From Asparagopsis taxiformis (Eukaryota; Rhodophyta; Florideophyceae; Bonnemaisoniales; Bonnemaisoniaceae), in NCBI GenBank assembly GCA_030407315.1, contig JALQPE010000933.1, forward strand, positions 1 to 64,000: a stretch of 64,000 nt of DNA, written 5' to 3'. The notes beneath the pieces are model-generated. The model worked only from the letters and a program-made list of their open reading frames with translations, was not told the origin of the DNA and did no database searches. The position numbers and the translations under genes are program-made. Within the stretch, counting starts at the first letter, position 1. Each line of letters starts with the position of its first letter. Positions 18,602 through 43,740 of the stretch are shown piece after piece.

Positions 18602-19179
18602 TTACTCGATTGATGACAGTGCTGACACACCCATAAGTTCTCGGAGCTTCATGAACTGAACGCGTTGCAGAGGCTTATTCAGCAGGTCGGCTATCATTTC
18701 AGATGTTGGGCAGTAGTCAATTGCAAACATCTCCTTCAGTAGACAATCTCGGACGAAATGATATTGAATGTCGATATGTTTGGTTCGAGTTCCCGATGCG
18801 TCATTCTTGGCCATCTTGATTGAGCCTTGGTTATCGACATTGATGAGAATCGGATCTGCGGAGCTCTTCCCGCTGCCGAAACCAACTATATTGCTGAGCC
18901 AAATAGCCTCCTTTACAGCAGAACTCAGGGCCATGTATTCAGCCTTGGAGGAAGACTGAGCTACACAGCTTTGCTTGCGAGACTTCCAGCTCACAGCTGC
19001 GTCAGCCATCATGAAGACGTAGCCGCTGGTAGATTTCCGATTTATTGTGCAGCCTCCCCAATCTGAGTCGCTAAATCCTACCGGTGATAGATCCTCTGAG
19101 GCCTTGTAAAGTACCCCAAAACCTTTAGTACCTGAAACATATCGTAGAACGCGCTTCACACCTACCGAGAGAGATTTGG
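18602..19179 (-). pseudogene. pol: Copia A pol, RNase H end
   Basis: The frame covers R-V-L-R-Y-V-S-G-T, S-D-S-D-W-G-G-C-T, the S-S-S-K-A-E-Y-M-A-L block, D-N-Q-G-S-I-K-M and H-I-D-I-Q-Y-H, the RNase H domain that degrades RNA in RNA:DNA hybrids. It breaks off at 19179 where the TIR transposon begins and resumes at 32126. The extra N-terminal residues of the open frame beyond 19179 are transposon TIR sequence. Confidence 0.85.
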
Positions 19180-19225
19180 AACACTGGTTTTTGTCTGTAC
19201 AGAACGTACTTTCGAAATCAGAATC
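19180..19225. repeat. Left terminal inverted repeat
   Basis: 46 bp. It matches the reverse complement of 32080-32125 with two mismatches. The 4 bp TTGG target duplication precedes it. Confidence 0.9.
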
Positions 19226-19318
19226 GGGTTTTTTCATAATGATTGAATAGGGGATATGACAAGTGTCATATTGATTGAAGCTATGTCAAGTTGATTGAAT
19301 TTTATTTTGTCTTAGTGG
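19226..19318. promoter_or_regulatory. Left subterminal TTGATTGAA repeats
   Basis: ATGATTGAA, ATTGATTGAA and GTTGATTGAA occur near 19238, 19273 and 19290. Their reverse complements occur near the right end (about 32037-32065). The position and inverted orientation suggest transposase-binding sites. Confidence 0.5.
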
Positions 19319-21781
19319 TTACCTCAGCATTGATGCTAGCCCAGCTCGGATTTCTTTTTCTACTCCTACTCTAATTCTTTTATTCGTGAGTGACGCGAAT
19401 TCAGCAATGACGGTGTCGACTGAAATAGTACTCTCCCATGGTACCGCCCTATTACGCTTTCGTATCACTGCAGGGCGATACTTCCCGGTCCATACATTCC
19501 CCTTATCGTAGACCTCGTACCACCGAACTGATAATCTTTTGATAACCCCTTCACCGTTTTCCTCACAAGCTTTTATCTGCCCCAACCAAAACGGCATATC
19601 GGTTGTACAACCTTCTCCGTTTACGGATACAAAGCGATTTACAGAATAAGGGAGGTCAGTCAACGGAGCCGAACATGCGTTCGAAATTTCGTCCTCCTCA
19701 TGTAGAACCAATCTATTCGAAACTTGATTGCGGTACACTCCGTTCAGCTCGAAGCACTCATGTAGGTTCCAGTGAAAAGGGTCATCCCTATTCGAATATA
19801 CCTGTTCAATCAATGCATGCAATTGCATCATCTTTGACGTACTATTAACTCTGGTTTCCTCTGCTCGAAGTCTTAACATGACTTCGTCTCGATCCGGCGG
19901 ACTTTTCAACACTGTGGGAGGAACTACTTTGAGATCCGGTGGTACCAATGTGAAGCCCTTTAGACCCAGTGTGATTGTTGGGAGGGGCTCCCATTCATCG
20001 TCGCAGGAGAGCTTGACGTTGCATGCCGTGTTGTACCAGCCAGTACGACGATCCGAACTTTCAGAGCGGAAAAACTTGAAGTACCTGTACTTTGAAAATG
20101 CATGCACCTTTCCAATCGAATTTTCGTTCGTGCAAAGGCCAGAGAAATTTGCGACGTGATTCATACGACAAACAGATGGCTCCGGTGTGTAAGAAAGCCG
20201 TAGCTCCCCAATTAGATCGTCCATGGTAGCTGCATTATAGCAATGAAACCTCCGCGAGGTGCAACTGAACGCTTGGTCAATATCAGCATGAGTGTGCCCA
20301 ATTGGTAGGAACGAAACTTGAACTTCAAGGAAAACACCCCATGCGACAAGGCACTCCAGATAGCAGAACAGAAACCTATTCTTGTTCTCTCTTGTGCAAT
20401 TATCAACTTGCACGAATAGTGTCCCTTGCAGTTTTGATCCCATAGCTTTCCTTGTAAGAGTCCTGTGTAGCGCCTCAATGATGTGGTTAGCGCCGGATTC
20501 GAACTCACCAGTCATCGTGTAGAGCGAAAGGTGCTTCTGAACTCCATGCTCGAGAACGCCTATTAATTTCACTTTCAAGCTATGGCCCACGGCTGCTTTC
20601 GTATTGACAATGAAATGAGGTAGGCCGTAGCTGGACTGGTCAGCCCCGTCGACAATCAATGATGTGAATCTTGATGGAAATAGCGCCGCCTGCTCACACT
20701 TCTTCTGGTACTCCCTTCGCTCCCGTGATACCATTCCAATATGCAGTTTACGGCGCTCAAGAAGTGGTGCAGTGCGAGAAGAATCAGTTCCGATCCTTTC
20801 CAGATGATCCCGTAGGTATTCACACTCTGAACATTTCATAAATCTGTGGATTCTCCTGACCTTGATATGACTGCAGTACTTTTTCCAAGTTGTGTAAAAG
20901 TAACTCAAAGTGGGAAATGCCTTCCCGGGATACAGAACGTCGTACTGATCACAAAACATTTCGTATACAGGTCTCTTCTGAAAGAGAGGTAGGTGTTTCT
21001 CTGCTCTGTCTGGCATATCATCGGCAGTAGAAGATGCGAAACGGTCGAGGAAACAGATGATTGCATCCCTCTGTGGTGAAGCAGCATCTCTTCTCGCACC
21101 TTTGAACAGGACTGAGGTTCCTTCTTCAGCAGATTTTTTAACTGAGCTCTGGAGATGTCGCGAAAACTTGAAGGAATACTCGAGGAAGCGATAACAAACG
21201 GGCCTTCCTGAGAAATAGTACACTTTCTTGTTGGCCTGTAGCATGCTCAGTAAATATTTCCGCCGTTCTTCCCTCTTCCATAGAAGGACTCTTCCTGCTT
21301 CGTGACGCAAGAATACGATATCGGTTTTCCAGAAGCACCTCTTCTCACAACACGTTTTTTTCCGAATGTCCATAGCTGAGAGAGAGTTGATGAATTTTTT
21401 TCTCTTTTGCCGCATTGTACTCATCGCAGATTGAGACGGAACAGCTGCTATGTGATCAGAAGTAGCGCATTCTCCATTTCGAAGTCTAGAAAATGGCCTC
21501 TTCAGTTTTTTTACAGGCTTGGAGATGGGCGAGGTTGAAATGTTATTTGTTTCGTTACCAAAATCGGAACTCTCCTCGGAGTGACTGTGTGCAGTGTTAT
21601 TCTGCGTGCCGTTGCCGGGACAAGAACCAGGTCTCGAGAGAACAGCGTTGTACCATGAGGTGCTTCCTGTGCTTTGGTACTCGATGAAAGGAGTACCACA
21701 TGGAGATGTATCGCTCACGTGACGAGAAGATAACGAGCGCAACATATGTTCTTCACTCGACTGCTCTTCACTCGACTGCAT
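19319..21781 (-). CDS. Transposase candidate, DUF7869-like
   Basis: An intact frame of 820 codons from the ATG at 21781 (the frame is open a further 12 codons upstream without ATG). The N-terminus is S/E-rich, followed by K-K-T-C-C-E-K-R-C-F-W (about residues 142-150), a likely zinc cluster, and a helical region ending in a K-C-S-E-C pair (about 316-320). The core has L-I-V-D-G-A-D-Q (D378/D381), Q-V-D-N-C-T-R-E-N-K-N-R (D460) and G-H-T-H-A-D-I-D-Q (D500/D502). This order and these motifs match the DUF7869 type of RNase-H-fold proteins, with the acidic residues as candidate catalytic triad for strand transfer. The C-terminal 110 residues (P-F-W-L-G-Q-I ... V-R-W-Y-E-V-Y) resemble a BAH/Tudor-like module. 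Being the only intact integrase-fold gene between the TIRs, it is the best candidate for the mobilising enzyme. Family assignment is by motif. Confidence 0.65.
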   Translation of the reverse strand: MQSSEEQSSEEHMLRSLSSRHVSDTSPCGTPFIEYQSTGSTSWYNAVLSRPGSCPGNGTQNNTAHSHSEESSDFGNETNNISTSPISKPVKKLKRPFSRLRNGECATSDHIAAVPSQSAMSTMRQKRKKFINSLSAMDIRKKTCCEKRCFWKTDIVFLRHEAGRVLLWKREERRKYLLSMLQANKKVYYFSGRPVCYRFLEYSFKFSRHLQSSVKKSAEEGTSVLFKGARRDAASPQRDAIICFLDRFASSTADDMPDRAEKHLPLFQKRPVYEMFCDQYDVLYPGKAFPTLSYFYTTWKKYCSHIKVRRIHRFMKCSECEYLRDHLERIGTDSSRTAPLLERRKLHIGMVSRERREYQKKCEQAALFPSRFTSLIVDGADQSSYGLPHFIVNTKAAVGHSLKVKLIGVLEHGVQKHLSLYTMTGEFESGANHIIEALHRTLTRKAMGSKLQGTLFVQVDNCTRENKNRFLFCYLECLVAWGVFLEVQVSFLPIGHTHADIDQAFSCTSRRFHCYNAATMDDLIGELRLSYTPEPSVCRMNHVANFSGLCTNENSIGKVHAFSKYRYFKFFRSESSDRRTGWYNTACNVKLSCDDEWEPLPTITLGLKGFTLVPPDLKVVPPTVLKSPPDRDEVMLRLRAEETRVNSTSKMMQLHALIEQVYSNRDDPFHWNLHECFELNGVYRNQVSNRLVLHEEDEISNACSAPLTDLPYSVNRFVSVNGEGCTTDMPFWLGQIKACEENGEGVIKRLSVRWYEVYDKGNVWTGKYRPAVIRKRNRAVPWESTISVDTVIAEFASLTNKRIRVGVEKEIRAGLASMLR

Positions 21782-21991
21782 GAGGTAATAGAAATGGAAA
21801 CAAATGGATTTCTGCAAAATGACTCAGTGGACTTCAGCTCGATTTCGCATGATACTAACGGGCAGCGACGGTCAGTATCCGCCGCCGGAACCAAATAATG
21901 AAATCTGGTTCCTCTAATCCGGATTAACTAGCACCAATGGATCATGAAAAATGATTTGTCATTGACAAAGTGTCTGGATATCGATGGAATA
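21782..21991. other. Spacer between transposase and methyltransferase genes
   Basis: About 210 bp between two minus-strand genes. It would hold the 5' region of the transposase gene. No clear promoter motif seen. Confidence 0.3.
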
Positions 21992-24952
21992 CTATTTCGA
22001 CTCGGGAAAACTTTGAGTTCGTTTCGGTTCCATGCTGAAAATATCCCAAGCGAATATTCCAAGCAGTCCCTTCAACGTTTCCGGAGGGGGCTCCACACCA
22101 CCGTAACAGTAAGGATAGGTTCGGTCTCCGGAACCCTCTCTCAGTTCGAATTTGTAGCACGAAACGAGTTTCTCTCCCTTCTTTTCGAATCTAGAAAGGG
22201 GGATATTGTGAATAGTAGTTTGAAATTGATCACCAGTAGACAATGGACGAAGCAAAGTTGCTTCTCCCACCGTTTTCCCAGATAAGCACAAATTGACAAT
22301 ATCCCCGCCTCGGAATATGTGGTCTGGCCGATCATCACGCTCACTTTCCGCTTGGCAATTTCTGTCGTCCTTCCGTTCCTGAAATCCTTCTTTGTCGAGA
22401 CCAGAACCCAATTCCTGGTTGGGAACAGATTCCTGGGAAGAGCGTATAGTGTCCTCCACGCATTCTCCTGTTTTCCGCCTCTTAGACCTTCGAATAGGTT
22501 TGATTTCTTGGTTGTATAATATTTCAGCTACAGAACGGAGTCTCTCGTACGCTAAACGAAAAGTGTTGGCACTGGCCTCAATTATCACGCACGAACGAGC
22601 AGTTCTCATGGCTGCAATGGCGGTTGTTAATGTACCCCCGTAAGCATCGATGACAGAACCACGTTCCGGACAGAACGTATTGATTACTTCCGAAAGCAAA
22701 CTGATATTCTTTTCTTCTGTCAGAACTGGTGACTTTGTTCCTGGAGTGAGGAGCTTGTCCTTCGGAACAGGAACTCCAGCAATTGCAGCGAACTTTCGTT
22801 TCGTGTCAGTTGAGATGAAGTGATACGGGCTACGAAGGTCAGGTTTGAACCCATCTGTTCGGATTCCCGGAGCTCTTGCGAAAGCGGCAAATTCACAAGC
22901 ATTCTGTGGAAACGTATCGCCTCGGTGATGCTGAATAGTACTCGTATCCTTCATAATAACAAAAGGGTAGTCCGGACATTCAAAGCCTGCATTTCGGAGC
23001 TCATCAGTGAGGAGGGGAAAGTTCCGAACAGAAACGAAACAGAAGAACCAGCCCCCAGGCTTCAAAACCCTTCTTGAAAACTGGCATAGATCCTTGATAT
23101 CTTTGTCGGAAATAAAGTTATCGTAAGGTGAATTACGAAGCGATCTGGATCTAGGTGTACCGTACGGAGGATCAGTTAGCATCATATCTAGAAGTGGTTG
23201 TTCATCTGTCCAGAACTCCTTATCGAACTCTTGCCATTTCATCTGGTGGCAGGTTATCTTCATTTCGGATACGTATTCGATGTTTTCATGTTTGCCAGCC
23301 CCAAGGGAGTTTCGCTTTGCGCGTAGGTTCAGTCTCTCAGAGTTGACACTTTGAGTTTCTGCAACTTTCTCCAGTGTTTTCGGTGCTGACTCACGTTTCG
23401 AACTTTTTTTTGCTTCAGTACCCATTCCGACTGCGTCTTGGACAGAGCCAGTAGTAACCTGACTGAACTTAGGCTCTTCTCCAACATTTTCCTGCTTATT
23501 TAATTCCTGCACTTCGCACGGGGGTGGACCGTGGATCAGGTCAACATCGTCTCCCGCGCGGGAATTAGGGTTGGGATCTCCGGATGTCCTTTCATCTTGC
23601 CGAAAATCGGTCTCCTTCTCTTTAGAATCCTGGTCCGGTTCTTTGTTTCGACTTTCGGCATATTTCTTCTCTTTCAAGGGGGCTATCTGTGGACAAACTT
23701 TCCTGTACTGGTTCAGGAGTGAATTCAGAACGTCATGGTCATTGCCGAGGTTTTCTGTGACTTCGGCATCAAACTTTGTAGTGCGAAGCAAGTTTTTTTT
23801 CGTTGCCTCCATTTCAGGAGGCCATGTACTATCTTCATGTAGACTTTCAAATTTGCGAGCCTCTTTCATTGCTGCACACGTGAGTTCGAACTGCTGTACT
23901 GTTATCTTGTATGAAATCGGTTTAAACTTGTTCAATTTGGAAAGATCTCGCATTCTATACAATGTGCAAACTTGAATTTCCTCAGCATCTGGTCCAAAAG
24001 CGTTCATAAACTTCGTCGCCGACTTCAGGGAAGTAATGTTAATAAAGTTCCGATATACTCTGGTTTCCACTGTAGATATCTTTGAATCACCTCCTCGACG
24101 AACGTCTTTGGTACCAGAAATGGATCCTACAAGATCAGGGAACTCTGAATTCATTATCAAACCGATCTCATCCACCACCTTGTCGGGTAGTCGAAGAGCA
24201 GTGGCAGCAGTTTGTCTGATGGTATTGTCCTTCAAGTGTGTGGAGCCGTCGTATGCTGCTGCTACTTGCTTGGCCGAGGGTTTCCGGGATGACATGCTCT
24301 GTAATCTCTCAGCCTCCTCCTTCATGCCATGAAGCATATCATAGAAAGTGGTTTCGATGTAAAAGTTCGAGTTATGCTTTCGATTCTGGTGTCTCCCGAG
24401 CTGCTTCAGTACATGAATAGACTGCCCCCCATCAAGAATTGCGACTGGCCATAAGAACGAGTCCCACCTTTCTGGTATTTCTTGCATCAGCTCTTGTATT
24501 GCCGTAAGTCTGTGCATCCCGTCGACGACACCGTACCAGACTGAGCGGCTTTCTACTTTCTCTTTCGCTTTCGATTCGCTAAGGAGCTCTCCATCCGAGC
24601 CAGTTTGGGATTTGAAGAAATCCAGCACGTGTCTTTTCAACGACCCTGTCAGCTCGACAACGATGGCATTGTCGGAACCGGCTACAAAGCCATCTACACC
24701 ATCTGTTCCATCACACGCCGAATCATATTTCATCGATCCAGTGAATATCAGTTTCATTCGTTCCACACCAGACCGCACGATATTCCGAACAGCAGTAAGC
24801 GGTATACACCCGCGGGGGTCGACACGGGTATTCATTGATCCTTCCATGACATCCCCGAATAGAACTTCAACTGAGTCTTGAAATCTTCCGGAACGAAGTT
24901 CCTTTCCATGCCCGGAAGTTTTCGCTCCAGGTCTTGTGCTTGGCTTCTTCAT
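21992..24952 (-). CDS. ParB-like / adenine-type DNA methyltransferase fusion
   Basis: Intact frame of 986 codons from ATG 24952. Residues about 95-175 form a ParB-like module with V-V-D-G-M-H-R-L-T-A-I (DGMHR at 144-148). A helical region follows, then a charged linker (about 425-550). The methyltransferase domain carries D-P-P-Y-G (594-598, motif IV), an F-C-F-V strand after L-K-P-G-G-W, K-S-P-V-L (740-744, a KP-like motif X) and S-V-I-D-A-Y-G-G-T-L-T-T (766-777, motif I, normally DPFxGSGTT). Motif IV before motif I is the beta-class order, and DPPY usually marks N6-adenine enzymes; N4-cytosine is less likely. A basic R-R-S-K-R-R-K patch (about 824-830) could be a nuclear signal. Such ParB-methyltransferase fusions are familiar in phage and bacterial elements. 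Here the gene sits inside a eukaryotic TIR element next to the transposase. Confidence 0.75.
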   Translation of the reverse strand: MKKPSTRPGAKTSGHGKELRSGRFQDSVEVLFGDVMEGSMNTRVDPRGCIPLTAVRNIVRSGVERMKLIFTGSMKYDSACDGTDGVDGFVAGSDNAIVVELTGSLKRHVLDFFKSQTGSDGELLSESKAKEKVESRSVWYGVVDGMHRLTAIQELMQEIPERWDSFLWPVAILDGGQSIHVLKQLGRHQNRKHNSNFYIETTFYDMLHGMKEEAERLQSMSSRKPSAKQVAAAYDGSTHLKDNTIRQTAATALRLPDKVVDEIGLIMNSEFPDLVGSISGTKDVRRGGDSKISTVETRVYRNFINITSLKSATKFMNAFGPDAEEIQVCTLYRMRDLSKLNKFKPISYKITVQQFELTCAAMKEARKFESLHEDSTWPPEMEATKKNLLRTTKFDAEVTENLGNDHDVLNSLLNQYRKVCPQIAPLKEKKYAESRNKEPDQDSKEKETDFRQDERTSGDPNPNSRAGDDVDLIHGPPPCEVQELNKQENVGEEPKFSQVTTGSVQDAVGMGTEAKKSSKRESAPKTLEKVAETQSVNSERLNLRAKRNSLGAGKHENIEYVSEMKITCHQMKWQEFDKEFWTDEQPLLDMMLTDPPYGTPRSRSLRNSPYDNFISDKDIKDLCQFSRRVLKPGGWFFCFVSVRNFPLLTDELRNAGFECPDYPFVIMKDTSTIQHHRGDTFPQNACEFAAFARAPGIRTDGFKPDLRSPYHFISTDTKRKFAAIAGVPVPKDKLLTPGTKSPVLTEEKNISLLSEVINTFCPERGSVIDAYGGTLTTAIAAMRTARSCVIIEASANTFRLAYERLRSVAEILYNQEIKPIRRSKRRKTGECVEDTIRSSQESVPNQELGSGLDKEGFQERKDDRNCQAESERDDRPDHIFRGGDIVNLCLSGKTVGEATLLRPLSTGDQFQTTIHNIPLSRFEKKGEKLVSCYKFELREGSGDRTYPYCYGGVEPPPETLKGLLGIFAWDIFSMEPKRTQSFPESK

Positions 24953-26213
24953 TGTTTAGGTACAGAATGCCTGCAGATGTCAAGAGGAAATGGAAATAAA
25001 TGGGGGTCCTGATATCCGGTACGAATCCAGTTCAGCCTACCCTTAGAGCGGAGAAAGAAAGGCCGGAGAGGTCCAGAACGAAAGAATGTTCTAGCAGCAG
25101 AAGACGGGAGCTTTCCAGTCACTCCAGGCAATGAACGAAAGTGAAAAAAGAACCCCTGGACATACAATAGAACCCACAGTGTATATCTGATGGAAGCTCA
25201 TTAGGCCAAATCAGTCTTTGTCACGTGCTACGATCGTCGGCGCCAAGTCACTCTTAGATCTGATGTGCAGGGGGGCTGCAGCTCACATAGGTTTCTAGTT
25301 GTTATGCCGGGACGGCCCTAAATTTGTTATCAGTAATGGGAAATTACTATTTCGTTATGCAGTTGGGCCAGTCCCATCCAATTACAAATCATATGACGGG
25401 ATTTTATTTCGTATTTTGGTTCTTGAGCCGATTTCGTACGTTTTCCTGTTCTGATTGATGTCCAAGATCATCACAGCCAAGTTGCTGTATGCCAAATGAT
25501 TTCTTGACACGTTTGCGTACCATTTCCAGGGTTTTTCTGTGTTACAGCTTGTAGAAGCAATGTACGTAGTATCCATATTGCGGGATAGGTCTTTCAGTGA
25601 GTGCACGATTCATAGCTATGGTTCGCATTCGAAAAAATTTTGTTTCTGATCGTTCCAAAGTATACCTTCAACTATCAACAACTGCTGCCTTTACCGCTAC
25701 CCTCACCATGACTTTTGGTGCGAACCAAAATATCAGTTCGTTCAGCATCATATCTGTCCACAGTCTATTCGAAACCACTCAACTTATCCAAGTTGTGCCA
25801 CCAGATGCGATACCTCATTTCGAAACTGGCTACTTGAACTTCAGAGCCATATTGAAGGCTTGAACTACATAGATTACTTCCTAATTTTCTATTGATGTCA
25901 CGAACACTTTGAAGATGAAAGGTTGAATGCAGTTCACCGAACAGGATAATCAACATTGTTTGCGGCATTTCCTACTCACACCCATATAGAATTTCCTGAT
26001 ATAGAACAGTGTTACCACTTGGAACCTTATGTTCCAGCTCGTTGGAACTGTTCAGTTCACGACCTGTCGTGGAACTGCTCAGATGTGGTGTCGAAAAGAC
26101 ATTTTGTCAGAACTATTCAAATGTATGCCATTCGACTGATCAGTCATCAGCAAAGCGCTGCACAGTCGGCAGCCACATGGCAACCGAACTTGATCAGAAG
26201 TTCGTTCCGAAGT
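24953..26213. other. 1.26 kb intergenic region between divergent genes
   Basis: It separates the minus-strand methyltransferase from the plus-strand gene at 26276 and probably contains both promoters. I see no ORF with protein-like composition and no long repeat. Confidence 0.4.
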
Positions 26214-26225
26214 CTATAAATATAG
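26214..26225 (+). promoter_or_regulatory. TATA box
   Basis: CTATAAATATAG lies about 60 bp upstream of the ATG at 26276, the right distance for a core promoter with a short 5' leader. Confidence 0.6.
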
Positions 26226-26275
26226 TGTTCTGCGTTCATACTTGGATTCTGTTTCACTTCACTATCCTATCAACC

Positions 26276-27298
26276 ATGGACGCGCCCTTCAAGAAGCGCA
26301 ATTTACAGCATGCAACGCACCACCAACCACCGTCTCCGTCACCATCCCGGCCAGCCTCGTCTCGTACTCAGCGCTACAGCGCTAGAGCAGCGAAGATCGC
26401 TGAGTTGAATGCGGCTGGAAAACTGGGTTCCTTTAAATGCTGTGATAATCGGGCATGTTTTGCTGTTGTCGATGGGGACAAGCTGTCCGAAGATACGAAA
26501 GCAATGTCAGTGAGCACTACTGCTGTTCGCAACAAGTATTTGCGTTCGCTCTATGACTGTGTGTCCGAGATGTATACGTATAATGGAAGGGTCGTGTGCT
26601 ATGAGTTTCTAACCAAGTCATTCGGGTTCTCCAGGGAGATGCAGTGGTCTAACAAAAAATTTCTAATGCGGGCTTATCAGATGCTGGTGGTCAAGGGAAT
26701 CGTGAAGATTTTGGACGGTGATTCTACGCGCCGAGGAGCTCACAGAGTGGAAAATTTAGATGGAACGGATACTGGCGGACTCGCGGAATTGCAGGAAACC
26801 GGGCAAAGCGGTGCAGATGGGAGGGGGACAAGCGGTACAAAAAGTGACGGAATTGGACGTCGGGACGTGGCTTCAGGTGTAAATCAGGAAATGGCAGAGC
26901 AAGGACATCAGAAAATGGATGCGCGCGCGCACGACGAGGACCAAGACAACTCCACGGACACCACCATGCGCCCCTCTCTCCCGTTACCCGAAAAAAATGG
27001 GTTTGTGGTCATCCGTGGTAATGAGTGTACTCCTGAAGAGCCATTCTGGGTCGGAAAGGTACAGAGCGTAAGGAAGAGAGGGGCGGGCGTCACAAAGCTG
27101 CGCATACACTGGTTTCAGAAGGAAGGAGATGCATTCGAAAGCCGCTACAAGCCTTGCTTTGTATTGAATACACCTACTCCCTGGTGTGACTTCGTCGATC
27201 CAAGCTCGGTGATTGCCACATTCCCCTCTATCCCCGAAATGCGCTTACCAAAAAGTATTTTTCAGTACTTGAAACTACATTCCCAGTGCCTCCGTTAG
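26276..27298 (+). CDS. Core-less paralogue of the transposon's transposase
   Basis: 340 codons. The ATG at 26276 has an ideal context (CAACCATGG) and a TATA box 60 bp upstream. The frame is open further upstream but without support. Residues about 45-160 align by eye with the N-terminal part of the 19319-21781 protein: C-C-D-N-R-A-C-F against C-C-E-K-R-C-F, R-N-K-Y-L-R-S-L against R-R-K-Y-L-L-S-M, and Y-N-G-R-V-V-C-Y-E-F-L against F-S-G-R-P-V-C-Y-R-F-L. The last 100 residues align with its C-terminus (P-F-W-V-G-K-V against P-F-W-L-G-Q-I; I-H-W-F against V-R-W-Y). The whole central domain with the acidic triad is replaced by about 80 G/D/E-rich residues. It would keep putative DNA- and chromatin-binding parts but could not catalyse transposition. 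A regulator or repressor is the natural inference; a silencing-independent host gene is possible. Confidence 0.65.
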   Translation: MDAPFKKRNLQHATHHQPPSPSPSRPASSRTQRYSARAAKIAELNAAGKLGSFKCCDNRACFAVVDGDKLSEDTKAMSVSTTAVRNKYLRSLYDCVSEMYTYNGRVVCYEFLTKSFGFSREMQWSNKKFLMRAYQMLVVKGIVKILDGDSTRRGAHRVENLDGTDTGGLAELQETGQSGADGRGTSGTKSDGIGRRDVASGVNQEMAEQGHQKMDARAHDEDQDNSTDTTMRPSLPLPEKNGFVVIRGNECTPEEPFWVGKVQSVRKRGAGVTKLRIHWFQKEGDAFESRYKPCFVLNTPTPWCDFVDPSSVIATFPSIPEMRLPKSIFQYLKLHSQCLR

Positions 27299-27381
27299 TC
27301 TCACCGTAAAAGAGTTTTCCAAAGTTACTTTGCAACACTCATTGTCAGCCTGTCTTTCGTGAGCTCACGGAGGCGCCGGAA

Positions 27382-27700
27382 GAGACATCCACGCCATGGC
27401 ATCTCAGGTATACACATGTGCAAAATCGTTGTGCACATTACGCTCAAATACAACAAAAACACAGCCACTTATTCGCGGGACATCCACGCTATGGCGTCTC
27501 AGGTACACACATGTGCACAATCATAGTGCAAATTACGCTCAAAGAATGCAACAAACACACAGCCACTTATTGGCGGAAATCCACGCCATGGCGTCTCAGA
27601 TACACACATAGCGTCTCAGGTGCACACATGTGCACAATCATTGTGCACATGACGCTCGAAGAGTGCAACACAAAGACAGCAACTTATTCGCGGGAGGTAC
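27382..27700. repeat. Tandem repeat, about 95 bp, three to four copies
   Basis: CATCCACGCYATGGCRTCTCAGGTA recurs near 27387, 27481 and 27578, each followed by CACATGTGCACAATCATTGTGCACAT-like palindromic sequence. A truncated unit follows at about 27609. Confidence 0.8.
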
Positions 27701-28470
27701 GGCGTGTGAGGTACAACATTTCACGGAGCGATGTGCTTCAATTTGAAGCACAACAGGTCGGTACAAAATTTTGAGTCATAATTTTGAATTGTGACATCTG
27801 ATCAAATTTGTACCCGCGGCCGGCGGCTTTCTACTGGAAGCACGCCGGCCATTTCACTGCCAGATAGTATGTTCTGTAAGCCGTGCATCCATGACCCTCC
27901 AAGGCCTTCAAATCGTTCCCTCTCCCGTCCGTCTCCCAAATCCTCTGTGTCCAGCACCATGTGTGTGATGAAGACATGGTTGCCATCTCCTCCAGGACAT
28001 TTTGTACTACCTGCATCTGTGCATCTCCCTTCCCGCTTTCGTCGCGAGGGCGGTTCAGGTTACTGTCATCAGGTTGGGCGTTGTTTTCAATTTTTAGACG
28101 ACCGGAACAATTGTTCTTTCCTTTTTTTTGGGACGAACACCAATATGAAAGAGAAAGTTCGATTTGGACAAGGCCGATGCGTTCAGGGCAATCAGGAACT
28201 GACGAAAAAGAAGCGCACAATTGATCTACACAATAACATTGCGACTGCTCTGCTCGATCAGGTTAAAGATCGTTGATTGGATGTCACTTTCAGGTGGAGG
28301 AGGAGGTGCTTGCCCGTCCAGGAAATTTCGATGTGGAACGCATTCTAGCGTGAATACGTGATGCCAGGGGTTCAAAAAGGGGGAAAGAGTATCTCGTAGA
28401 TGATGCAGTCACCCTGGATGATCCAGACTCTTGAATCTCCGTATCCGATGCTTTGCCGCCCCTCCCCCAA
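27701..28470. other. Unassigned stretch with a possible minus-strand relic
   Basis: A minus-strand frame from 28220 to 27831 is open for 129 codons and has fairly protein-like composition (acidic/polar start, then aromatic-rich end), but I recognise no domain and no good start. The 19 bp palindrome GTGCTTCAATTTGAAGCAC lies near 27736. I cannot support a gene. Confidence 0.25.
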
Positions 28471-29185
28471 CAATATGCACCTTGCCGAGACAACCGCTAT
28501 CAATGCGCACGAGAGGCCCGCATGAAAGCAGCCGTGGGAAGCACTTGCGGGGGCCATAGAAGATTCAGTCAAGATCAGTGCACGTCGACTGTGCCGAATG
28601 GCATTCGGTTAATATCGATTAAGTGACTCGAGTGATGAAAGAAGAGTACGGTTCCACTGGCAGATTTTGCGCAACAATATGCACCTTGCCTAGACAACCT
28701 CTATCAATGCGCACGAGAAGCCCTCATGAAAGCAGCCGTGGCTGTTCCGACTGCTGGCAGCAGTACCCTTCAATGACGGAGCAGAGTACATTGTCTAAAT
28801 CTCCAACAGCCTATTCTCTCAATGCTGCAATCGTGGCAGAAGCGAAAAAAGGTATTACTGACCCTGGACTGAAGCTGTACCATCCTCTGGTTGACCCAGT
28901 TCCGCTGCCAACATTGGAGACTACTGACGCGAGGCAACCTACTTCATCCACAAGAGCTTCAACCAATACATTAAATCAAGAGGAGGCAAAGAATGGTTCA
29001 AGTACTCGAGTAAGAACTCCAAGCGCATGAGATCAATCAGAGGGCGACAAGCAGCTCGAGCTACCTCCACAGACACGGTTCCACTGGCAGATTTTGCGCG
29101 CGCAAATTTGTTGCGCAACAATATGCACCTTGCCGAGAAAACCTCTATCAATGCGCACGAGAAGCCCTCATGAAAGCAGCCGTGG
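28471..29185 (+). repeat. Triplicated segment of the NLR gene start
   Basis: A segment reading CAACAATATGCACCTTGCC through ATGAAAGCAGCCGTGG occurs near 28470-28535, 28670-28745 and 29105-29185. The first copy is joined directly to GAAGCACTTGCGGGGGCCATAGAAGATTCA, a piece whose parental copy is at about 29873. It therefore looks like an internally deleted duplicate. Frames are broken in the first two copies. Confidence 0.75.
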
Positions 29186-31415
29186 CTGTTCCGCCTGCTG
29201 TTAATGAACTAGTTCGAACGACGACTGTCGCACTGGTAGGGCCGCATGGTGTCGGGAAAACCACCCTGGCGACTGCTTTGGTAGAAGATGTCGAGCTTTG
29301 TCATAGCTCCGCAGATGGTTTGGCTTGGATACAACTCGGTCCAGATATCAACGATAAGGAGCTTTCAGACCAGATTATTCATTGCGTAGAAACGATTATC
29401 GCTGGGGACTTTCGAAGCTCGGTTCGAAGTTGCAGCTCCCTTCAGTCTGTTGTTTCGGAAGCTTCTCGCTTGTTGCAATATGTATCTGCCCTCATTGTAA
29501 TTGATGATGTCTCAGGCCCCCGCGCACAGCATGCTCGCTCAGCATGCTTTTGATATAGTCATTTGAGCTCTAGGCTGCTCCAGCGTCACGTTTTATACGG
29601 CTCCAGTAGATGCTGATGAAGCCACTGGTGATTCTCTATCCCTGTATCATGTCACATGTGTTCCCAAGCTATTTGTTCAACCTCTGGATCCTAATAGCCA
29701 AGAGTCCCACCTTATCTTTCGGAGTTGGCTACGCCCCACCAAGTCAGACGGAAATCGGGAGAGTATGGGAACATTTGTTCGAGAACAGGCAGTTATCGTT
29801 GCAGCTTGCCACGGGATCCCTCTGGCTCTAGCGATGACTGCAGGCTTTCTGTCCAAGTTTCAAGGAACATGGGAAGCACTTGCGGGGGCCATAGAAGATT
29901 CACCATCTGGTGAAGAGACGATCGAAAGAATAATGCGTATTTTGCAATCGCGTGGAGGCAGCAGGTTCTTGTCTCAACTTCGTGCAATCGCAACTCTTCC
30001 GCATGGTGTTTGGGTATCTCTTTCCACGTTGGCTGACCTGCATCATTGGCACATATTAAACGGAGATGCAATTACGAAACTCAATAGCTCAATTTGCGAC
30101 TTTCAGTGGATCACACAACGGCTTCAGAGGGATGGCTTACTTGGAGTAGTTACGGAATTTAGCTTGGCGGTTTCTGCTAAAGAAGGTCGATGGAACAACA
30201 CCGAAGCGGAAAGTTTACAACTCATCTTGACTGCTATTTTAGATACAGCCAAGCTGAGAAAGTACGAGGGCCTTTAGGAAACTGCAATGCCTACTTTTCT
30301 TGTCTCTAGATGAAACAGCCAGGCGCCCATGGCTATGGCCAATCCCTGCCGTAAATTCCCGTATTCCGCCCTCATTCATAGTACCAATGTCCACCGACTC
30401 CCTCGATAGTAGTGCTCCAAGTGCGTACTTCAGCTGCCTTGCTGCGACCGCGTCCGGAAAAGCTGTCTGCGGCGACAGACTTGGGAATATCAACGTTTAC
30501 GACCCGTCTACCGCGAAAAAGATTGTTTAATGGACTGCATCAGAAACTGGAGGCAACCGCAACAGCAGGGGCGTAGGCGCGCTTGCCACAGCGCAAGATT
30601 ATGTTATCTCCGGCCATTTTGGGGGAATGGTATTCTTGAGGTCGATCCGATCTGGAGAGACAAAAGCTCTTCAGAACACTTGAGATCGAAGTGACAACAT
30701 TACGTCCATATCTGCTTTGGAAAATGGAACAGTGGCAGTGGGATCACAAAAGGGATGCCTGTATGTGTTGAGAAAAGTTCTGCAACAGGGATCTTCAGTT
30801 CTAAAGTTTGACTTGGAAGGCCATTGTGATGATGTGACGAGCTTGTACATTTTCCCGGATGGACGGCGTATTGCAAGCAGTAGTTATGATGGATATGCGG
30901 CGATCTTGCACTTGAGTTCGAATGGGTATCGACGAATTTCACTGAATGGACACAAACCGGATGTGGGACATAAGGAGAATTACATCACCAACTTTGCATC
31001 CATTTCGGCAGGAAAGCGGCTTTTGTCCGCATGTCGCGGAGGAGCAGTGAGTGCATGGGATGCAACGAACGGGGATTGCTTGTGGACACAGCGATGCGGA
31101 TTTGAATTCAGTCGAAGTTTGTCGTTACAGGCTTATGGAATAGAACATTTTGCATCGGAAATGACGGACAGTGTGGAGGGGATGAATATGTTGAAAATTG
31201 GATTCCCATACGTTGTGACAAGAGGAAAAGGACCGTGCGAGCTGCAGGTGATAGCAGCTGGAGGAGAAGGGGATACGCTGACGACAATTACGACTGAGCA
31301 GGCCATATCCACTTGGCTGGAGGTGTGGCAACCAGCGAGTCAGCGCATTTTCGTTGCCGTCTCGTATTCTGACGGGCATATTTCCTCGTTTCAGCTTGTA
31401 ACATCATTGAAGTGA
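29108..31415 (+). pseudogene. NB-ARC / WD40 (NLR-type) gene relic
   Basis: Order of parts: about 29108-29170 helical lead-in; P-loop G-P-H-G-V-G-K-T-T near 29242 (Walker A); L-I-V-I-D-D-V-S near 29490 (Walker B/kinase-2); after a frameshift, L-D-P-N-S-Q-E-S-H-L-I-F (RNBS-like) near 29690 and C-H-G-I-P-L-A-L near 29809 (the GxPLA motif); then helical sequence to about 30275; then, after another frameshift, about five WD40 blades (for example C-G-D-R-L-G-N-I-N-V-Y-D near 30470, G-H-C-D-D-V-T-S-L near 30820). Such NB-ARC plus WD40 proteins (APAF-1-like STAND ATPases) act as oligomerising sensors of cell death or defence. Lesions: a 13 bp duplication with frameshift near 29540, in-frame TGA near 29565, TAA at 30528, TGA at 30681. 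The gene is dead or needs heavy recoding. Confidence 0.65.
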
Positions 31416-32079
31416 TCGATAACTTAACTGAAGTGCTTGAAGTATTGCATACGTTTTAGGTTTAAATCTCTAGCAACTGAATCCGCTAAGCGCTCCGCAC
31501 TAGTCATCATCTAGCTTTTAACTTGCAAACTAATAAACTACAAAGGCTGCGGTTCGCCCGAACTATCTCCATGATGCACCTTCCTTCTGTACTGCTCACA
31601 TGAACCATCAATCTTGCTGTTCTTGCTGTGGATACATGGGGAGGGATGAGGATGGAGGAATAAGTGGTTGAGGTGCAAGAGAAGGCGTGGACGGTAACCG
31701 ACATGTATCTATCTATGAGATGAGATGCACCAACGCGGCAAGCAAATATGACAAAAAGAAACACGGTGCACATATAGTTTTTTTATAAAATAAATACAGA
31801 TAATGTTATCAAATATGAACTCTAGTATGGCCCGATTGTTTTGGAAACGACGAATACAGTTCAAGCGCAACTTTCAAGGCAGAAGCGAGCAAATTGTCAA
31901 CAGGCTGTCAGGATTGTATACGAGCTAGGCTACGACAGGCTGTAAGACAAACAATTTGGGCTGGGCAGTGATAAACTTGGAACTGTCTGCGCAATTCCAG
32001 CCAATCAGTCAATATGTTTATCTCATTGGCCACAATTCAATCAACTCCAGAGTAATCAATCAACATCGAAAAATTTGCA
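31416..32079. other. Right non-coding end of the TIR transposon
   Basis: AT-rich, without a credible ORF. Near the end it holds inverted copies of the left subterminal words (TTCAATCAACTCC, AATCAATCAACA). Confidence 0.5.
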
Positions 32080-32125
32080 GATTCTGGTTTCGAAAGTACG
32101 TTCTGTACAGACGAAAACCAGTGTT
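32080..32125. repeat. Right terminal inverted repeat
   Basis: Ends CCAGTGTT and is followed by TTGG. Pairs with 19180-19225. Confidence 0.9.
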
Positions 32126-32997
32126 TTGGTTGGAGTCTCGACGAACTGAGCAAGTCTTCCGACTGCAAACGCGATGTCAGGACGAGTTCCCACAGCTAGA
32201 TACATTAGGCTTCCAATGGCTTTGCGGTAGAGCGTGGAGTCAATTGCCTCTGTTTCGGTATCCCCAATCGAGATCTGAGCTTGCATTGGAGTTGTAACAG
32301 GGCTGGAGTTTTCCATTCCGAATCGTTCCAATACCTTTTCGGCGTATCGGGTTTGATTCAAGTGCAACAGCCCTCTGGAAGGGTCCCGTACAATTTCTAG
32401 TCCAAGGCACACTCGAGCTCTGCCACAGTCTTTCATCTCGAAGCGTTTGCAGAACTCTTCCTTTAGTTCGTCCAATAAGTCTCTGCTGCTAGAGGCCAGC
32501 AACAAATCATCCACGTAAAGTGCAATGATCATCATAGAATCCTTACTGTTCCTAACATAGAAGCATGGATCGTACGGGGAGCTCTGGAATGTGAGTTCAG
32601 ATATGAGAAACTCGTCAATTTTAGCGTGCCACTGCCTTGGAGCCTGTTTGAGGCCGTAAAGTGCTTTCTGAAGTTTACAGACATGGTTGGGATACGCTGG
32701 ACTCACAAATCCCTCAGGCTGCTCCATGTATATTTCTTGTTCGAGGTCACCATAGAGAAAGGCTGTCTTCACATCCATCTGATCGCAGAAAAGATCGTGA
32801 TGAACAGTCAGAGCGAAGAACATGCGTAGAGTACAGAACTTGACAACAGGTGCGTATGTTTCGGCATAGTCAATGCCATATTTCTGCTCGAATCCTCGCG
32901 TCGCGAGCCGAGCTTTATGCTTTATTGAGTGCTCTCCGTTGTCGTTGATGACATCTTTGCGTTTGAAGACCCATTTTGTAGAAAGAAGGTTGACAGC
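32126..32997 (-). pseudogene. pol: Copia A pol, reverse transcriptase part
   Basis: Continues from 52515 across the copia B insertion. It includes M-D-V-K-T-A-F-L-Y-G-D-L, L-K-Q-A-P-R-Q-W-H and the catalytic Y-V-D-D of copia reverse transcriptase, then L-Y-R-K-A-I-G-S-L-M-Y. It ends where the TIR transposon was inserted (32125). The sequence is very close to the corresponding part of element C (44827-45600). Confidence 0.85.
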
Positions 32998-37678: not shown

Positions 37679-38294
37679 TTACTCGATTGATGACAGTGCT
37701 GACACACCCATAAGTTCTCGGAGCTTCATGAACTGAACGCGTTGCAGAGGCTTAGTCAGCAGGTCGGCTATCATTTCAGATGTTGGGCAGTAGTCAATTG
37801 CAAACATCTCCTTCAGTAGACAATCTCGGACGAAATGATATTGGATGTCGATATGTTTGGTTCGAGTTCCCGATGCGTCATTCTTGGCCATCTTGATTGA
37901 GCCTTGGTTATCGACATTGATGAGAATCGGATCTGCGGAGCTGTTCCCGCTGCCGAAACCAACTATATTGCTGAGCCAAATAGCCTCCTTTACAGCAGCA
38001 CTCAGGGCCATGTATTCAGCCTCGGAGGAAGACTGAGCTACACAGCTTTGCTTGCGAGACTTCCAGCTCACAGCTGCGCCAGCCATCATGAAGACGTAGC
38101 CGCTGGTAGATTTCCGATTTATTGTGCAGCCTCCCCAATCTGAGTCGCTAAATCCTACCGGTGATAGATCCTCTGAGGCCTTGTAAAGTACCCCAAAACC
38201 TTTAGTACCTGAAACATATCGTAGAACGCGCTTCACAGCTACCCAGAGAGATTTGGTTGGAGTCTCGACGAACTGAGCAAGTCTTCCGACTGCA
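37679..38294 (-). CDS. pol: Copia C pol, RNase H end
   Basis: Continues the frame of 48287-44827 across the D insertion. It includes R-V-L-R-Y-V-S-G-T, S-D-S-D-W-G-G, the S-E-A-E-Y-M-A-L block, D-N-Q-G-S-I and P-L-Q-R-V-Q-F. It is undamaged up to its stop at 37679, 16 bp from the LTR. Confidence 0.9.
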
Positions 38295-38299
38295 AACGC

Positions 38300-38787
38300 T
38301 GTTGATAAGGTTTGGTCGCTTACCGAGCGTTTACTGAATCTGCGAGCTCACTACATAATTTGTATTCTCGCCGAGGTGCGCCGGCGGTGCTAAGGACAGC
38401 CTGTTCAAGGCTGCTCCAGACAGACTGTCACTGACAGTCTGTCCTAGCAAGCACCCGCTGCCAATCTGGTACACGTGGGCTTCTCTATCATATCATCCAC
38501 ACGTGTACACTTATCATAACATTTTCCCTCTGCCATGATGGCAACCCATCCTGGCATTTCTAATTACTAATTGAAACTATGACAAACAAATTGAAACTTC
38601 AGAGGCCAGTTACTCCGTAATGGAGTGTCGTAGGAGCCCCGGAGAAGTTGCTACCCGACTAATTCGGGCACGCTGAATACGATGAGATAGGTTTCAGAGC
38701 GCTCAGACCACTCCTTCTAGGAGAAATCGAGGGTCAAAGTTTTCTCACGGAATTAGGCCTACCAGGCCCATTCTCAGTGAGTCAACA
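38300..38787 (-). repeat. 3' LTR of copia D
   Basis: Preceded on the minus strand by the polypurine tract (plus CTCCCCCTCTTTG, 38788-38800). Contains GACAGTCTGTC-type palindromes and two CACGTG-like boxes. Confidence 0.93.
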
Positions 38788-41700
38788 CTCCCCCTCTTTG
38801 ACCTGCTCGATGGATGAAATATCTGACACGCCGATCATCTATCTCCCGGAGCTTGATAAATTGAACTCGTTGCAGGGGCTTGGTTAACAGATCTGCCGCC
38901 ATATCTGATGTGGGACAGTAGTCAATGCCGAACAACGTCTTGAGTAAGCTGTCTCGGACGAAGTGATACCGAATGTCGATGTGTTTGGTACGAGTTCCTG
39001 AGGCATCGTTCCTAGCCATCTTGATGGAACCTTGGTTGTCGACATTGATTAGGATCGGATCCGCCGAGCTGCTTCCACAGCCAAACCCAACAATATTACT
39101 CAACCAAATAGCTTCCTTCACCGCAGCGCTGAGAGCCATATATTCAGCTTCGGAGGAGGATTGCGCTACACAACTCTGTTTGTGAGATTTCCAGCTCACC
39201 GCTGCTCCAGCCATCATGAACACGTATCCGCTGGTGGATTTCCGATTGATCGTACAACCACCCCAATCTGAGTCACTATATCCGACAGGTGACAGAGGCT
39301 TCGATGCCCTGTACAGCACACCAAGGCTTCGAGTACCAGAAATGTATCTTAGAACACGCTTGACAGCAACCCAGAGAGATTTGGTTGGAGTCTCCACGAA
39401 TTGGGCAAGTCTTCCAACAGCAAATGCGATGTCGGGGCGAGTTCCCACTGCGAGATACATCAAGCTTCCAATGGCTTTGCGGTATAATGTAGAGTCTATG
39501 GCCTCTGTTTCAGTATCACTGATGGAAATCTGAGCCTGCATAGGGGTTGCAGCAGGGCTTGAGTTCTCCATGCCGAATCGTTCCAATACCTTTTCAGCGT
39601 ACCGAGTTTGATTCAAATGAAGTAGTCCTCTAGGTGAGTCCCTTACGATTTCCAGCCCGAGGCACACTCTAGCTTTCCCACAATCTTTCATTTCGAAGCG
39701 TCTACTGAACTCAGCCTTCAGCTCGTTCAACATGTCTCTGCTGCTTGAAGCGATAAGGAGGTCATCAACGTAGAGGGCAATGACTATCATCGAATCTTTA
39801 CGGTACCTCACGTAGAAACATGGGTCGTACGGAGAACTCTGGAATTCTAGTTCTGAAATGAGAAACTCGTCGATCTTTGCGTGCCATTGCCTCGGAGCCT
39901 GTTTTAGTCCATACAAAGCTTTCTGCAGTTTGCAAACATGATTAGGATACTTCGTGTCGACAAAGCCCTCCGGTTGTTCCATGTATATGTCTTGTTCGAG
40001 GTCTCCGTAGAGGAAAGCTGTCTTGACGTCCATTTGATCGCAATGGAGGTCGTGATGGACAGTGAGAGCGAAGAACATGCGAATAGTGCAGAACTTGACA
40101 ACCGGTGCATATGTTTCAGCATAGTCAACACCGTACTTCTGCTGGAATCCCCGAGTTACCAGGCGAGCTTTATGTTTGACCGAGTGCTCACCAGTTTCAC
40201 TGACAACATCTTTGCGTTTGAACACCCATTTGGATGAAAGTAGGTTGACAGCTTCACTGCGAGGGACCAAAATCCAGGTGCGGTTTGTATAAAGGGAATT
40301 CATTTCAGACTGAATGGCACCGATCCAAAGGTCTTTCTCCTCCCCCTTGGTCACCTCAGTGAAGGTGAGGAGGTGTTCTGGAGTAGGATCGGGCGCGGTA
40401 GTGACGAGTGCAGTGGTTTTCCACCACTCACTCGGAGGTTTGCGGGTGCGAGACGATTTACGGGGAGCATTGAGTAACGAGGCATCTTGACTGTAGGATG
40501 GCGTTGGCGGAGGTGATTGAGGTGAAATATGGTCCGAATCTGAACCTGAATGGGAGGAAGAAGATTCATTTCTGGGAGTTCCTCCATAAGGTTTTTCCCT
40601 CATTGGGTCTTGTGAGGTATCTTCTAGACTGACATCAGCTCCAGTAATGTCTAGATGTGACGGTAGTTTCCTCGACCTCGTCTCCTCGAAAATGACATCG
40701 CGAGAGACAACTATTTTCTCATTCGTTAGATCCCACAGTTTATATGCCTTCTGTGATGTTGCATACCCTAGCATGATAGCCTGAACAGCACGAGAATCGA
40801 GCGCTTGGAGATGTGTGTTCGGGAGTTTGTACCAACAAATGCTTCCAAATGTTCGCAGGTGTGCAATGTTTGGCTTCCGCCCATACCATAGCTCATATGG
40901 AGTGGTTCCAGCGGGGAGAGCACGGCTGGTGAGACGATTGCGAATGTAGGCAGCACAAGAAAGTGCTTCCGCCCAGAACTCCAATGGAGTGGAATTGTGG
41001 AGAAGCATGGCCCGCATATGTTCCTTAAGGGTGCGATTCATGCGTTCCGCAACTCCGTTTTGTTGGGGAGTGTAGGCACAGGTAGTTTGACGTTGGATAC
41101 CCCTGTCTTCAAGGAAAGAGCTGAATTCGTTTGAGAAGTACTCTCCCCCTCCGTCTGAGCGTAGTTGACGAAGTTTGCATCCTGTTTGAGTTTCAGTGAG
41201 GCGCAGAAATCGTTGGAATGCATCGAAACAATCCGACTTACGGTGCAGCGGATACACAGTTAGGTAGCGAGACTTATCATCGATGAAGGTCACGAAGTAT
41301 CGAGCTCCCCCTTTCGAACGTATTTCCATTGGCCCTGCCAGATCTGTGTGGATCAGTTGGAGAAGCTCGGAGGCTCTTGTCTCGGAGAATTTTGGGATAG
41401 CAGCACGAGGCATTTTACCAGTAACACACCCTTCACATAGATTTTCAGGTGGGGACTGCTCAGGTTTGATTCGGAGTCCTTTGACCGCTGATGTCTTTGC
41501 CATACGAGAGATTCCGTTTTTGTGAACATGCCCAAGTCGCTCATGCCACAGCTGCAGTGACGCGATGCAAGCTAACTCGAAGGGCTGTTGTTTATTTCTG
41601 GAGGGCATGTAGAGGTCAATTGCATAGAGCCCGTGGCGTCTATGGCCAGTAGCTATTGATTCCCCGTTTTGGGTTAAGAGGACTGCATTGTTCGTGAACT

Positions 41701-42871: not shown

Positions 42872-43056
42872 GGCTCTGCAGTAAGTCTTATCTGTTCGAC
42901 CCTTCCCAAGTGGACAACCGATAGTCGTCGAGGACCAAGCTGGGATCTATAGGATAGAGACTGTCTAGCTAAGAGCGAAGTGGATGGAGAACAAGAAAGC
43001 AAGGTTTAACGATACGAAATCAGCTAGATTTCTAGTGTCTAGAGGAGAGAGAGAAA

Positions 43057-43472: not shown

Positions 43473-43569
43473 CTATGGAGATAGAGAGAGAGAAGATGTT
43501 AGCAGTTATACCGATCAGGACTAAGGTCTAAACCTTGAAATTGACCGAAAGATGACAGGTATAACTTAC
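43473..43569 (-). other. Leader intron of copia D (97 nt)
   Basis: Minus strand: donor GTAAGT, branch-point-like CTAAC about 30 nt before the 3' end, pyrimidine tract, CCATAG acceptor. Splicing joins CAAAA to TGTCTAG and so creates ATG with A at -3. The same arrangement is kept in the three sister elements. Confidence 0.8.
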
Positions 43570-43740
43570 TTTTGAAGATGAATGAGTACGTTAACCAATG
43601 CAGAAGTTTATTGTTGTGTGACTTATTAATGCTATACCGATCAGGACAAGGTTTCTGACTTACAAGAGCAGAACCGAGTTGAGAAAGGTATAGACAAGTC
43701 TTTTATAACGAGCAGTCGATTCCAGTATGTTGGCCTTAAG

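What the first reader, a model, noticed from the sequence alone, without database searches (positions are those of the whole stretch)
19180..32125. A 12.9 kb eukaryotic TIR transposon carrying a ParB-methyltransferase, a core-less transposase paralogue and an NLR relic
The 46 bp TIRs, the TTGG duplication and clean re-joining of the host copia sequence define the ends. Between them lies a DUF7869-like integrase-fold gene with three genes not expected in a cut-and-paste element. Modification enzyme, possible regulator and defence-type gene together resemble a cargo-carrying element. I know of no named superfamily with this set.
Basis: partly seen in the sequence, partly recalled or inferred. 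Interest (0 to 1): 0.93.

Follow-up and report, generated by a model that had tools for sequence, protein, structure and literature searches.

The report
Gene-capturing TIR transposon, swappable right end

Summary
The element is real and exactly bounded (19180-32125, 46-bp TIRs, TTGG duplication); an empty copia site lies in the same window. Its family is young: all 40 scored left ends are 98-100% identical; 12 of 16 copies with both flanks read have a perfect 4-bp duplication. In 11 copies compared, the left ~8.5 kb (DUF7869 protein, methyltransferase, core-less transposase paralogue) is ~99% identical, while the right ~4 kb falls into five kinds holding host gene pieces: NB-ARC-WD40, MED13-, PPP5-, DEAD-, RCHY1-like. 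Two source genes were found. The 'NLR relic' is a shuffled copy (main blocks 95-96%) of an uninterrupted host gene. The MED13 copy lacks two segments that are coding in the host, so capture was at DNA level. One cargo sits on two backbones. ParB-methyltransferases in algal transposons are already in print (PMC12477816), as are Sola2 elements with constant 5' and different 3' parts (PMC3627910). Best reading: Sola-like element capturing genes by template-switching gap repair. Superfamily and transposase fold remain unproven: structure prediction never ran.

The parts
19176..19179 (.). target site duplication TTGG, left
19180..19225 (+). left 46-bp TIR; left end 98-100% identical in the 40 scored genome matches, the window itself included
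19319..21823 (-). ORF with DUF7869 (putative transposase; D392, D514, D516 invariant and D474 at 90% or more in 56 aligned sequences); 96-bp in-frame deletion near the 5' end relative to 10 of 10 other copies
21992..24955 (-). 987-aa ORF: conserved N-terminal half (ParB-like by weak evidence), N6/N4 DNA methylase domain with DPPY, C-terminal accessory domain
26000..27298 (+). 432-aa stop-to-stop ORF (373 aa from first Met): N- and C-terminal parts of the transposase without the DUF7869 core
27387..27629 (+). tandem repeat array (95-bp and 20-bp rows) just before the variable part
28402..28759 (+). captured host NB-ARC-WD40 gene, four short out-of-order pieces (reverse complement of L060: 191-326, 998-1030, 1188-1294, 257-344)
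28757..29076 (+). captured piece of the host MED13-like gene (93% to host C2139, 94% to cargo E of copy C1640)
29075..29099 (+). 25-bp piece of the host NB-ARC-WD40 gene (1270-1294), then 16 bp unassigned
29116..31464 (+). captured host NB-ARC-WD40 gene, three blocks (257-1168, 1460-1725, 1782-2937), 95-96% identical, frames broken: the 'NLR relic'
31715..32125 (+). right terminal region, 72-87% alike between kinds A, B, C/D and E (C and D share theirs at 95%)
32080..32125 (-). right 46-bp TIR
32126..32129 (.). target site duplication TTGG, right
38007..38299 (+). paralogous empty site in another copia copy, 289/293 identical across the joined flanks

Best explanation
It is a recently active, probably autonomous cut-and-paste DNA transposon family, most likely of the Sola kind. 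The DUF7869 protein is the transposase that cuts at AACACTGG ends and makes 4-bp duplications (shown: ends, duplications, an empty site; inferred: catalysis). The core-less paralogue keeps the outer domains and probably acts as a competitor or regulator of the transposase (inferred). The ParB-like/methyltransferase protein probably binds and methylates the element's own DNA (inferred; PMC12477816 proposes the same for its element). The right third is a filler zone. After excision the gap is repaired by copying; the copying end jumps to other templates by a few bases of homology, sometimes to host genes and sometimes to other copies of the element (capture and exchange shown; the repair route inferred). 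So one left module is joined to changing right parts. The NLR relic is one such transduplicated host gene.
For: Family, TIRs and 4-bp TSDs. Empty site. C2022 and C1795 are 99.99% identical over the backbone (gaps left out) at different sites (TSDs TCTG and TGAC). All three ORFs open in 4 of 10 fetched copies (C2567, C2022, C1795, C1640). Constant left and variable right in the 11 copies compared, five cargo kinds. Source genes: 961 codons without a stop for NB-ARC-WD40 at C224 and a MED13-like gene at C2139; the host flanks read match none of the five copies compared outside the captured part. Window cargo is shuffled, with 0-3-bp overlaps or 3-16-bp fillers at junctions. MED13 cargo lacks 570 and 409 bp that are open reading frame in the host. 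Cargo D on two backbones: starred branches force 2 changes, 0% of 200 bootstrap trees unite it (sites). D itself is a mosaic: left part like A (98%), right part like C (92-95%). Methyltransferase kept with divergent transposases. Core-less relative P0098.
Against: No structure could be predicted, so the DDE/D fold is not shown; no Sola reference sequence was at hand. Variable sites by codon position (transposase 23/13/28, methyltransferase 14/27/25, core-less 9/6/10) show no clear purifying selection. In the 10 fetched copies the transposase frame is open in 6, the methyltransferase in 5, the core-less in 7. 4 of 16 copies lack a clean TSD (C1701 shifted by one, C2738, C533, C1640). Source genes were sought for two cargo genes only. 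The host MED13 stretch is read in two frames, so it has an unresolved intron or frameshift; the host NB-ARC frame runs to the edge of L060, so its start is not fixed. Left ends below 98% were not sampled.
Confidence: 0.75

Rival explanations
1. Cargo-carrying element: the NLR (and other cargo) is a useful payload acquired to benefit element or host, as in fungal Starships.
For: NB-ARC-WD40 pieces are kept in several copies: window, C2567, C1548, C533; WD40 pieces also at C420 and, partly, C712 next to right ends.
Against: Frames broken and order shuffled; the same slot holds MED13-, PPP5-, DEAD- and RCHY1-like pieces in other copies; the source gene is uninterrupted elsewhere.
Confidence: 0.07
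2. Retro-capture: cargo derives from spliced mRNA copied by a copia-type reverse transcriptase.
For: Several copia copies in the window; captured pieces named by Pfam are mostly in sense orientation towards the right TIR, the PKD piece excepted.
Against: Segments missing from the MED13 cargo are coding in the host, not introns; NLR pieces are out of order and partly repeated. I saw no poly(A) at the junctions printed but did not search for it.
Confidence: 0.08
3. The cargo kinds are independent old lineages with ordinary divergence, and the left part was homogenised by gene conversion; no active capture now.
For: Right terminal regions 72-87% alike between A, B, C/D and E against ~99% for the left part; captured pieces are mostly 4-9% diverged from host, so not new.
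Against: Does not explain how host genes got in; it overlaps with the best explanation on exchange.
Confidence: 0.25
4. The element is an assembly or nesting artefact.
For: 4 of 16 copies have imperfect TSDs; nested TEs occur in some copies.
Against: Clean TSDs in 12 of 16 copies, 11 of 14 sites, and an empty site.
Confidence: 0.01

Closest known systems
Sola1-1_Ec32 of Ectocarpus (PMC12477816, passages seen)
   Same: Giant DNA transposon of an alga with a ParB-like/N4-N6 DNA methyltransferase accessory gene; the authors propose binding and modifying its own DNA
   Different: 21.5 kb; [quoted passage not shown] no captured host gene slot in the passages seen
Sola2-Fanzor elements PPa-1, 4, 5 of Polysphondylium (PMC3627910, passages seen)
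   Same: 98% identical 5' ~7 kb with the transposase, entirely different 3' parts, TIRs and 4-bp TSDs
   Different: 3' parts carry Fanzor1 rather than host gene fragments; TSDs AT-rich there, mixed here; relatedness of the transposases not tested
Pack-TYPE / Pack-MULE elements of plants (PMC8903248, listing only; PMC6431247, passages)
   Same: Host gene fragments carried between TIRs and multiplied
   Different: Those are non-autonomous; here the fragments ride in copies that also hold the transposase gene
Giant EnSpm and ParB-methyltransferase transposons of red algae (Kojima 2013 and Petroll 2025, only seen cited in PMC6431247 and PMC12477816)
   Same: Large red-algal DNA transposons with several accessory genes; ParB-methyltransferases are said to be reported there
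   Different: EnSpm ends begin CACTA with 2-3-bp TSDs (recalled); here AACACTGG ends and 4-bp TSDs
P-element KP-type repressors (recalled, no call)
   Same: Shortened transposase relative keeping outer domains
   Different: Here a separate, divergent gene (30-33% identical), not a deletion derivative

Membership tests
Sola superfamily | 4-bp target site duplication | tested here: met
   12 of 16 copies perfect
Sola superfamily | DDD transposase (recalled from Bao et al. 2009, not read) | tested here: inconclusive
   D392, D514, D516 invariant and D474 at 90% or more in 56 sequences, but no fold: structure prediction did not complete
Sola superfamily | sequence similarity to known Sola transposases | not testable with these tools
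   No Sola reference protein available; DUF7869 occurs in 0 held papers
Algal transposons with ParB-methyltransferase | N4/N6 DNA methyltransferase domain | tested here: met
   PF01555 E=4e-11; DpnA structure 5hek E=4e-12 with the alignment; DPPY motif
Algal transposons with ParB-methyltransferase | ParB-like domain in the same protein | tested here: inconclusive
   Only phrog_2159 E=0.07 and GmrSD_N E=0.19 at residues ~141-206; the region is well conserved
Pack-TYPE elements | host gene fragments between TIRs | tested here: met
   Source genes found for two cargo genes
Pack-TYPE elements | no transposase gene (non-autonomous) | tested here: not met
   Transposase ORF open (832-833 aa from first Met) in 6 of the 10 fetched copies: C2567, C2022, C1795, C663, C2889, C1640; 820 aa in the window copy
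EnSpm/CACTA | CACTA ends and short (2-3 bp) TSD (recalled) | tested here: not met
   AACACTGG ends, 4-bp TSD
Starship-type cargo element | tyrosine recombinase captain gene (recalled) | tested here: not met
   None of the families listed for the 8 window ORFs scanned against Pfam is a recombinase (not every ORF was scanned)

The most novel reading that the evidence does not exclude
These elements are standing gene-shuffling machines: a fixed left module (transposase, own DNA-modifying enzyme, core-less regulator) and a right-hand capture slot into which host genes are copied at DNA level and which is traded between copies, so that an autonomous transposon keeps making new host-gene chimeras. 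The methyltransferase may mark the element's DNA so that excision and templated repair can occur without silencing.
Probability: 0.3. Interest if true: 0.78.

Novelty: new variant of a known kind. Interest (0 to 1): 0.58.

Why it matters
Gene capture by TIR transposons is, as far as I know, best documented for non-autonomous Pack elements of land plants. Here the same outcome is seen in a probable red alga, in copies that still hold the transposase gene, with two source genes, the junctions and exchange between copies readable in one genome. That makes the gap-repair/template-switch model of capture directly testable. It also suggests a function for DUF7869, a Pfam domain of unknown function named in no held paper, and adds a system in which a transposon carries its own adenine- or N4-cytosine-type DNA methyltransferase.

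Tried and rejected
Rejected: NLR as functional defence cargo (broken, shuffled, uninterrupted source gene elsewhere). Rejected: mRNA-derived capture (missing MED13 segments are coding). Rejected: the 96 bp missing from the window copy near the transposase start as an intron (no GT-AG on the coding strand by eye, sequences). Weak or empty: three viral-contig scans confirmed no relative of transposase or methyltransferase; the phage collection gave one 25%-identity methyltransferase match; the PDB profile search with the transposase alignment gave nothing better than E=0.25; NCBIfam and PHROGs gave nothing for transposase or core-less gene; the bacterial-type promoter/terminator scan was uninformative. 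Codon-position counts were too few to show selection. No Pfam name was obtained for the 200-aa C2022 piece that I took for RecQ-like, and only weak coiled-coil matches for the C1701 piece that I took for SMC-like; those two labels are dropped from the report. A ParB-like reading of a protein in L065 got no support. Block coordinates printed as 'window' are one base too low; the report uses element position + 19179.

Limits: 40 of 185 left-end and 40 of 332 right-end candidates were scored. Of 20 further contigs paired in those lists, 10 copies were fetched whole. The transposase alignment A1 holds the window and 55 of 84 relatives; A2 holds the window and 12 of 12 methyltransferase relatives. 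Host taxon is inferred: 10 light-harvesting protein matches; after a multi-domain chain (9vfj) the best PDB match is 7y5e, which I recall as Porphyridium.

Full report
OBSERVATION. The element runs from 19180 to 32125 (12,946 bp), begins AACACTGG and ends CCAGTGTT, and is flanked by TTGG on both sides. The 46-bp TIRs are 96% complementary; with up to 3 mismatches the TIR pattern occurs only at these two places in the window, and in none of 100 shuffles. It sits in a copia element, and another copia copy at 38007-38299 reads through the joined flanks at 289/293 identity with one TTGG: a paralogous empty site.

FAMILY. The window lies in a 141-Mb assembly of 3156 contigs. The 40 scored left-end matches (of 185 candidates; one is the window) are 98-100% identical, and the other 39 start within three bases of the TIR. 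The 40 scored right-end matches (of 332 candidates) range from 87 to 100%. Twenty further contigs show both ends at a fitting distance; I fetched 10 of these copies whole, 12.7-13.7 kb long. Both flanks were read for 16 copies. Twelve show a perfect 4-bp duplication: window TTGG, C2567 and C1548 AATA, C2022 TCTG, C1795 TGAC, C663 TCTA, C2889 ATTC, C519 CTGT, C1683 AACA, C2338 GCGA, C2739 TAGG, C87 ACTA. C1701 is shifted by one base; C2738, C533 and C1640 show none. C2567/C1548 and C2738/C2739 appear to be one site each in two contigs, so 11 of 14 sites are clean. C2022 and C1795 are 99.99% identical over the backbone at different sites, so movement was recent.

CONSTANT LEFT, VARIABLE RIGHT. 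In the 11 copies compared the first ~8.5 kb is 98.9-99.99% identical, gaps left out, and holds three ORFs. All three are open in 4 of the 10 fetched copies (C2567, C2022, C1795, C1640). The right ~4 kb falls into five kinds: A (window, C2567, C1548, C533) NB-ARC and WD40; B (C1701, C2889) DEAD helicase and PPP5-like phosphatase; C (C2022, C1795) and D (C663, C519) RCHY1-like zinc fingers, D also NB-ARC; E (C1640) MED13-like. Pfam supports NB-ARC and WD40 and DEAD, PPP5/Metallophos, RING plus zinc_ribbon_6, MID_MedPIWI and a PKD domain (the RING piece scanned was that of C663). The last ~330-410 bp before the right TIR are 72-87% alike between A, B, C/D and E; C and D share theirs at 95%.

SOURCE GENES. 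The MED13-like piece was found 100% identical over 373 aa in 8 places (26 matches in all). A gene at C2139 matches cargo E in three collinear blocks at 93-96%. The 570 and 409 bp missing from the cargo lie in open reading frame of the host, and each junction is a 1-bp overlap. The host stretch changes frame once, an intron or frameshift that I did not resolve. The captured stretch spans about 160,287-164,311 of C2139, 91-96% identical; outside it the host flanks read match none of five copies. Copy C87 shares the same two gaps, so one capture was multiplied. For cargo A, C224 holds 961 codons without a stop for an NB-ARC-WD40 protein, open to the edge of the stretch read. The window cargo is made of out-of-order, partly repeated blocks of it, the larger ones at 95-96%, plus a 320-bp MED13 piece, joined with 0-3-bp overlaps or 3-16-bp fillers. 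The WD40 query found 10 places, among them C930 and C224 at 96%; C930 and C2290 were not read. This is the 'NLR relic'.

EXCHANGE. C663 and C519 share cargo D (98.6% over 4.9 kb), itself a mosaic of an A-like left part (98%) and a C-like right part (92-95%). On the backbone tree C663 groups with kind A and C519 with kinds C/E; 0% of 200 bootstrap trees unite them and the starred branches force two changes. Diagnostic sites agree.

PROTEINS. The DUF7869 protein has 84 relatives at E<=0.001. In an alignment of the window and 55 of them, DGADQ and GHTHxDxDQ are invariant or nearly so, with D392, D514 and D516 invariant and D474 at 90% or more: a plausible DDD site, not shown by structure. The methyltransferase has 12 relatives. 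Its methylase part matches PF01555 and DpnA structures. The N-terminal half is the most conserved part, and in P0092, P0094, P0095 and P0096 the DPPY motif is altered, so methylation may be dispensable in some lineages. P0086, P0088, P0090 and P0091 are listed with the same source and longest-contig length as transposase relatives P0005, P0009, P0014 and P0016, which suggests the same contigs. The core-less protein matches the transposase at 33% over 130 aa (N) and 30% over 111 aa (C) (profile probability 98.8 for the C part). P0098, 34% identical over 60% and also short, shows that such a gene exists in at least one more, diverged form; its organism is unknown.

MECHANISM. Shown: TIRs, 4-bp duplications, recent spread, DNA-level capture of host genes, exchange of right parts. 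Inferred: DUF7869 as the enzyme, core-less gene as regulator, methylation of its own DNA, and gap repair with template switching as the route. Codon-position counts give no clear sign of selection on the ORFs. Published parallels are Sola1-1_Ec32 with a ParB-methyltransferase (PMC12477816, passages; it cites Iyer 2011 and Petroll 2025 for similar proteins, neither held) and Sola2 elements with nearly identical 5' and different 3' parts (PMC3627910, passages). No held paper names DUF7869. In the listings I saw no title or abstract start that describes this set together with captured host genes; beyond the passages cited I did not read those papers.

VERDICT. A real, well-bounded and informative transposon family. 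Its parts have precedents; their combination with evidence of host-gene capture and exchange in transposase-bearing copies appears new within the literature I could search.

Noticed in passing
window 38300-44824: An LTR-type insertion (TGTTGA...TCAACA, 5-bp repeat AACGC) nested in a copia copy, with a 1390-aa open copia-like polyprotein frame.
   Followed up: partly
L065 (G000:C3112:38000-41500): 9-12.7 kb from a left end of this family, a stretch unlike the five copies compared encodes a SET domain and a protein with the ~100-aa domain found at the C-terminus of the methyltransferase: another large TE or a new cargo.
   Followed up: partly
P0009, residues 17-117: The C-terminal domain of the methyltransferase is fused to the N-terminus of a relative's transposase (36% over 102 aa): a recurring transposon accessory domain for which Pfam gave no match.
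   Followed up: partly
A2 relatives P0092, P0094, P0095, P0096: The catalytic DPPY motif of the methyltransferase is altered (DPSY, EPPD, EPPD, DPGC) while the N-terminal half stays conserved.
   Followed up: no
L013 and L014 (G000:C2291, C1015): Divergent right ends with a changed TIR (...TGTACATATCRAAATCAGTGTT) and, in the 1.2-1.5 kb seen, interiors unlike the known kinds: probable sister families.
   Followed up: partly
L048, L052 (G000:C2308, C3005): MED13 cargo stops at the same point in both; in L048 the sequence beyond begins CACTACGG with many small inverted repeats: a nested, perhaps EnSpm-like element.
   Followed up: no
L060 (G000:C224:93900-97300): Host gene with 961 codons without a stop for an NB-ARC-WD40 (APAF1-like) protein, in an alga with red-type light-harvesting genes.
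   Followed up: partly
L059 (G000:C533, matches from 20,318): A second, internally deleted element end with MED13 cargo lies within about 1 kb of the left end of the C533 copy.
   Followed up: no
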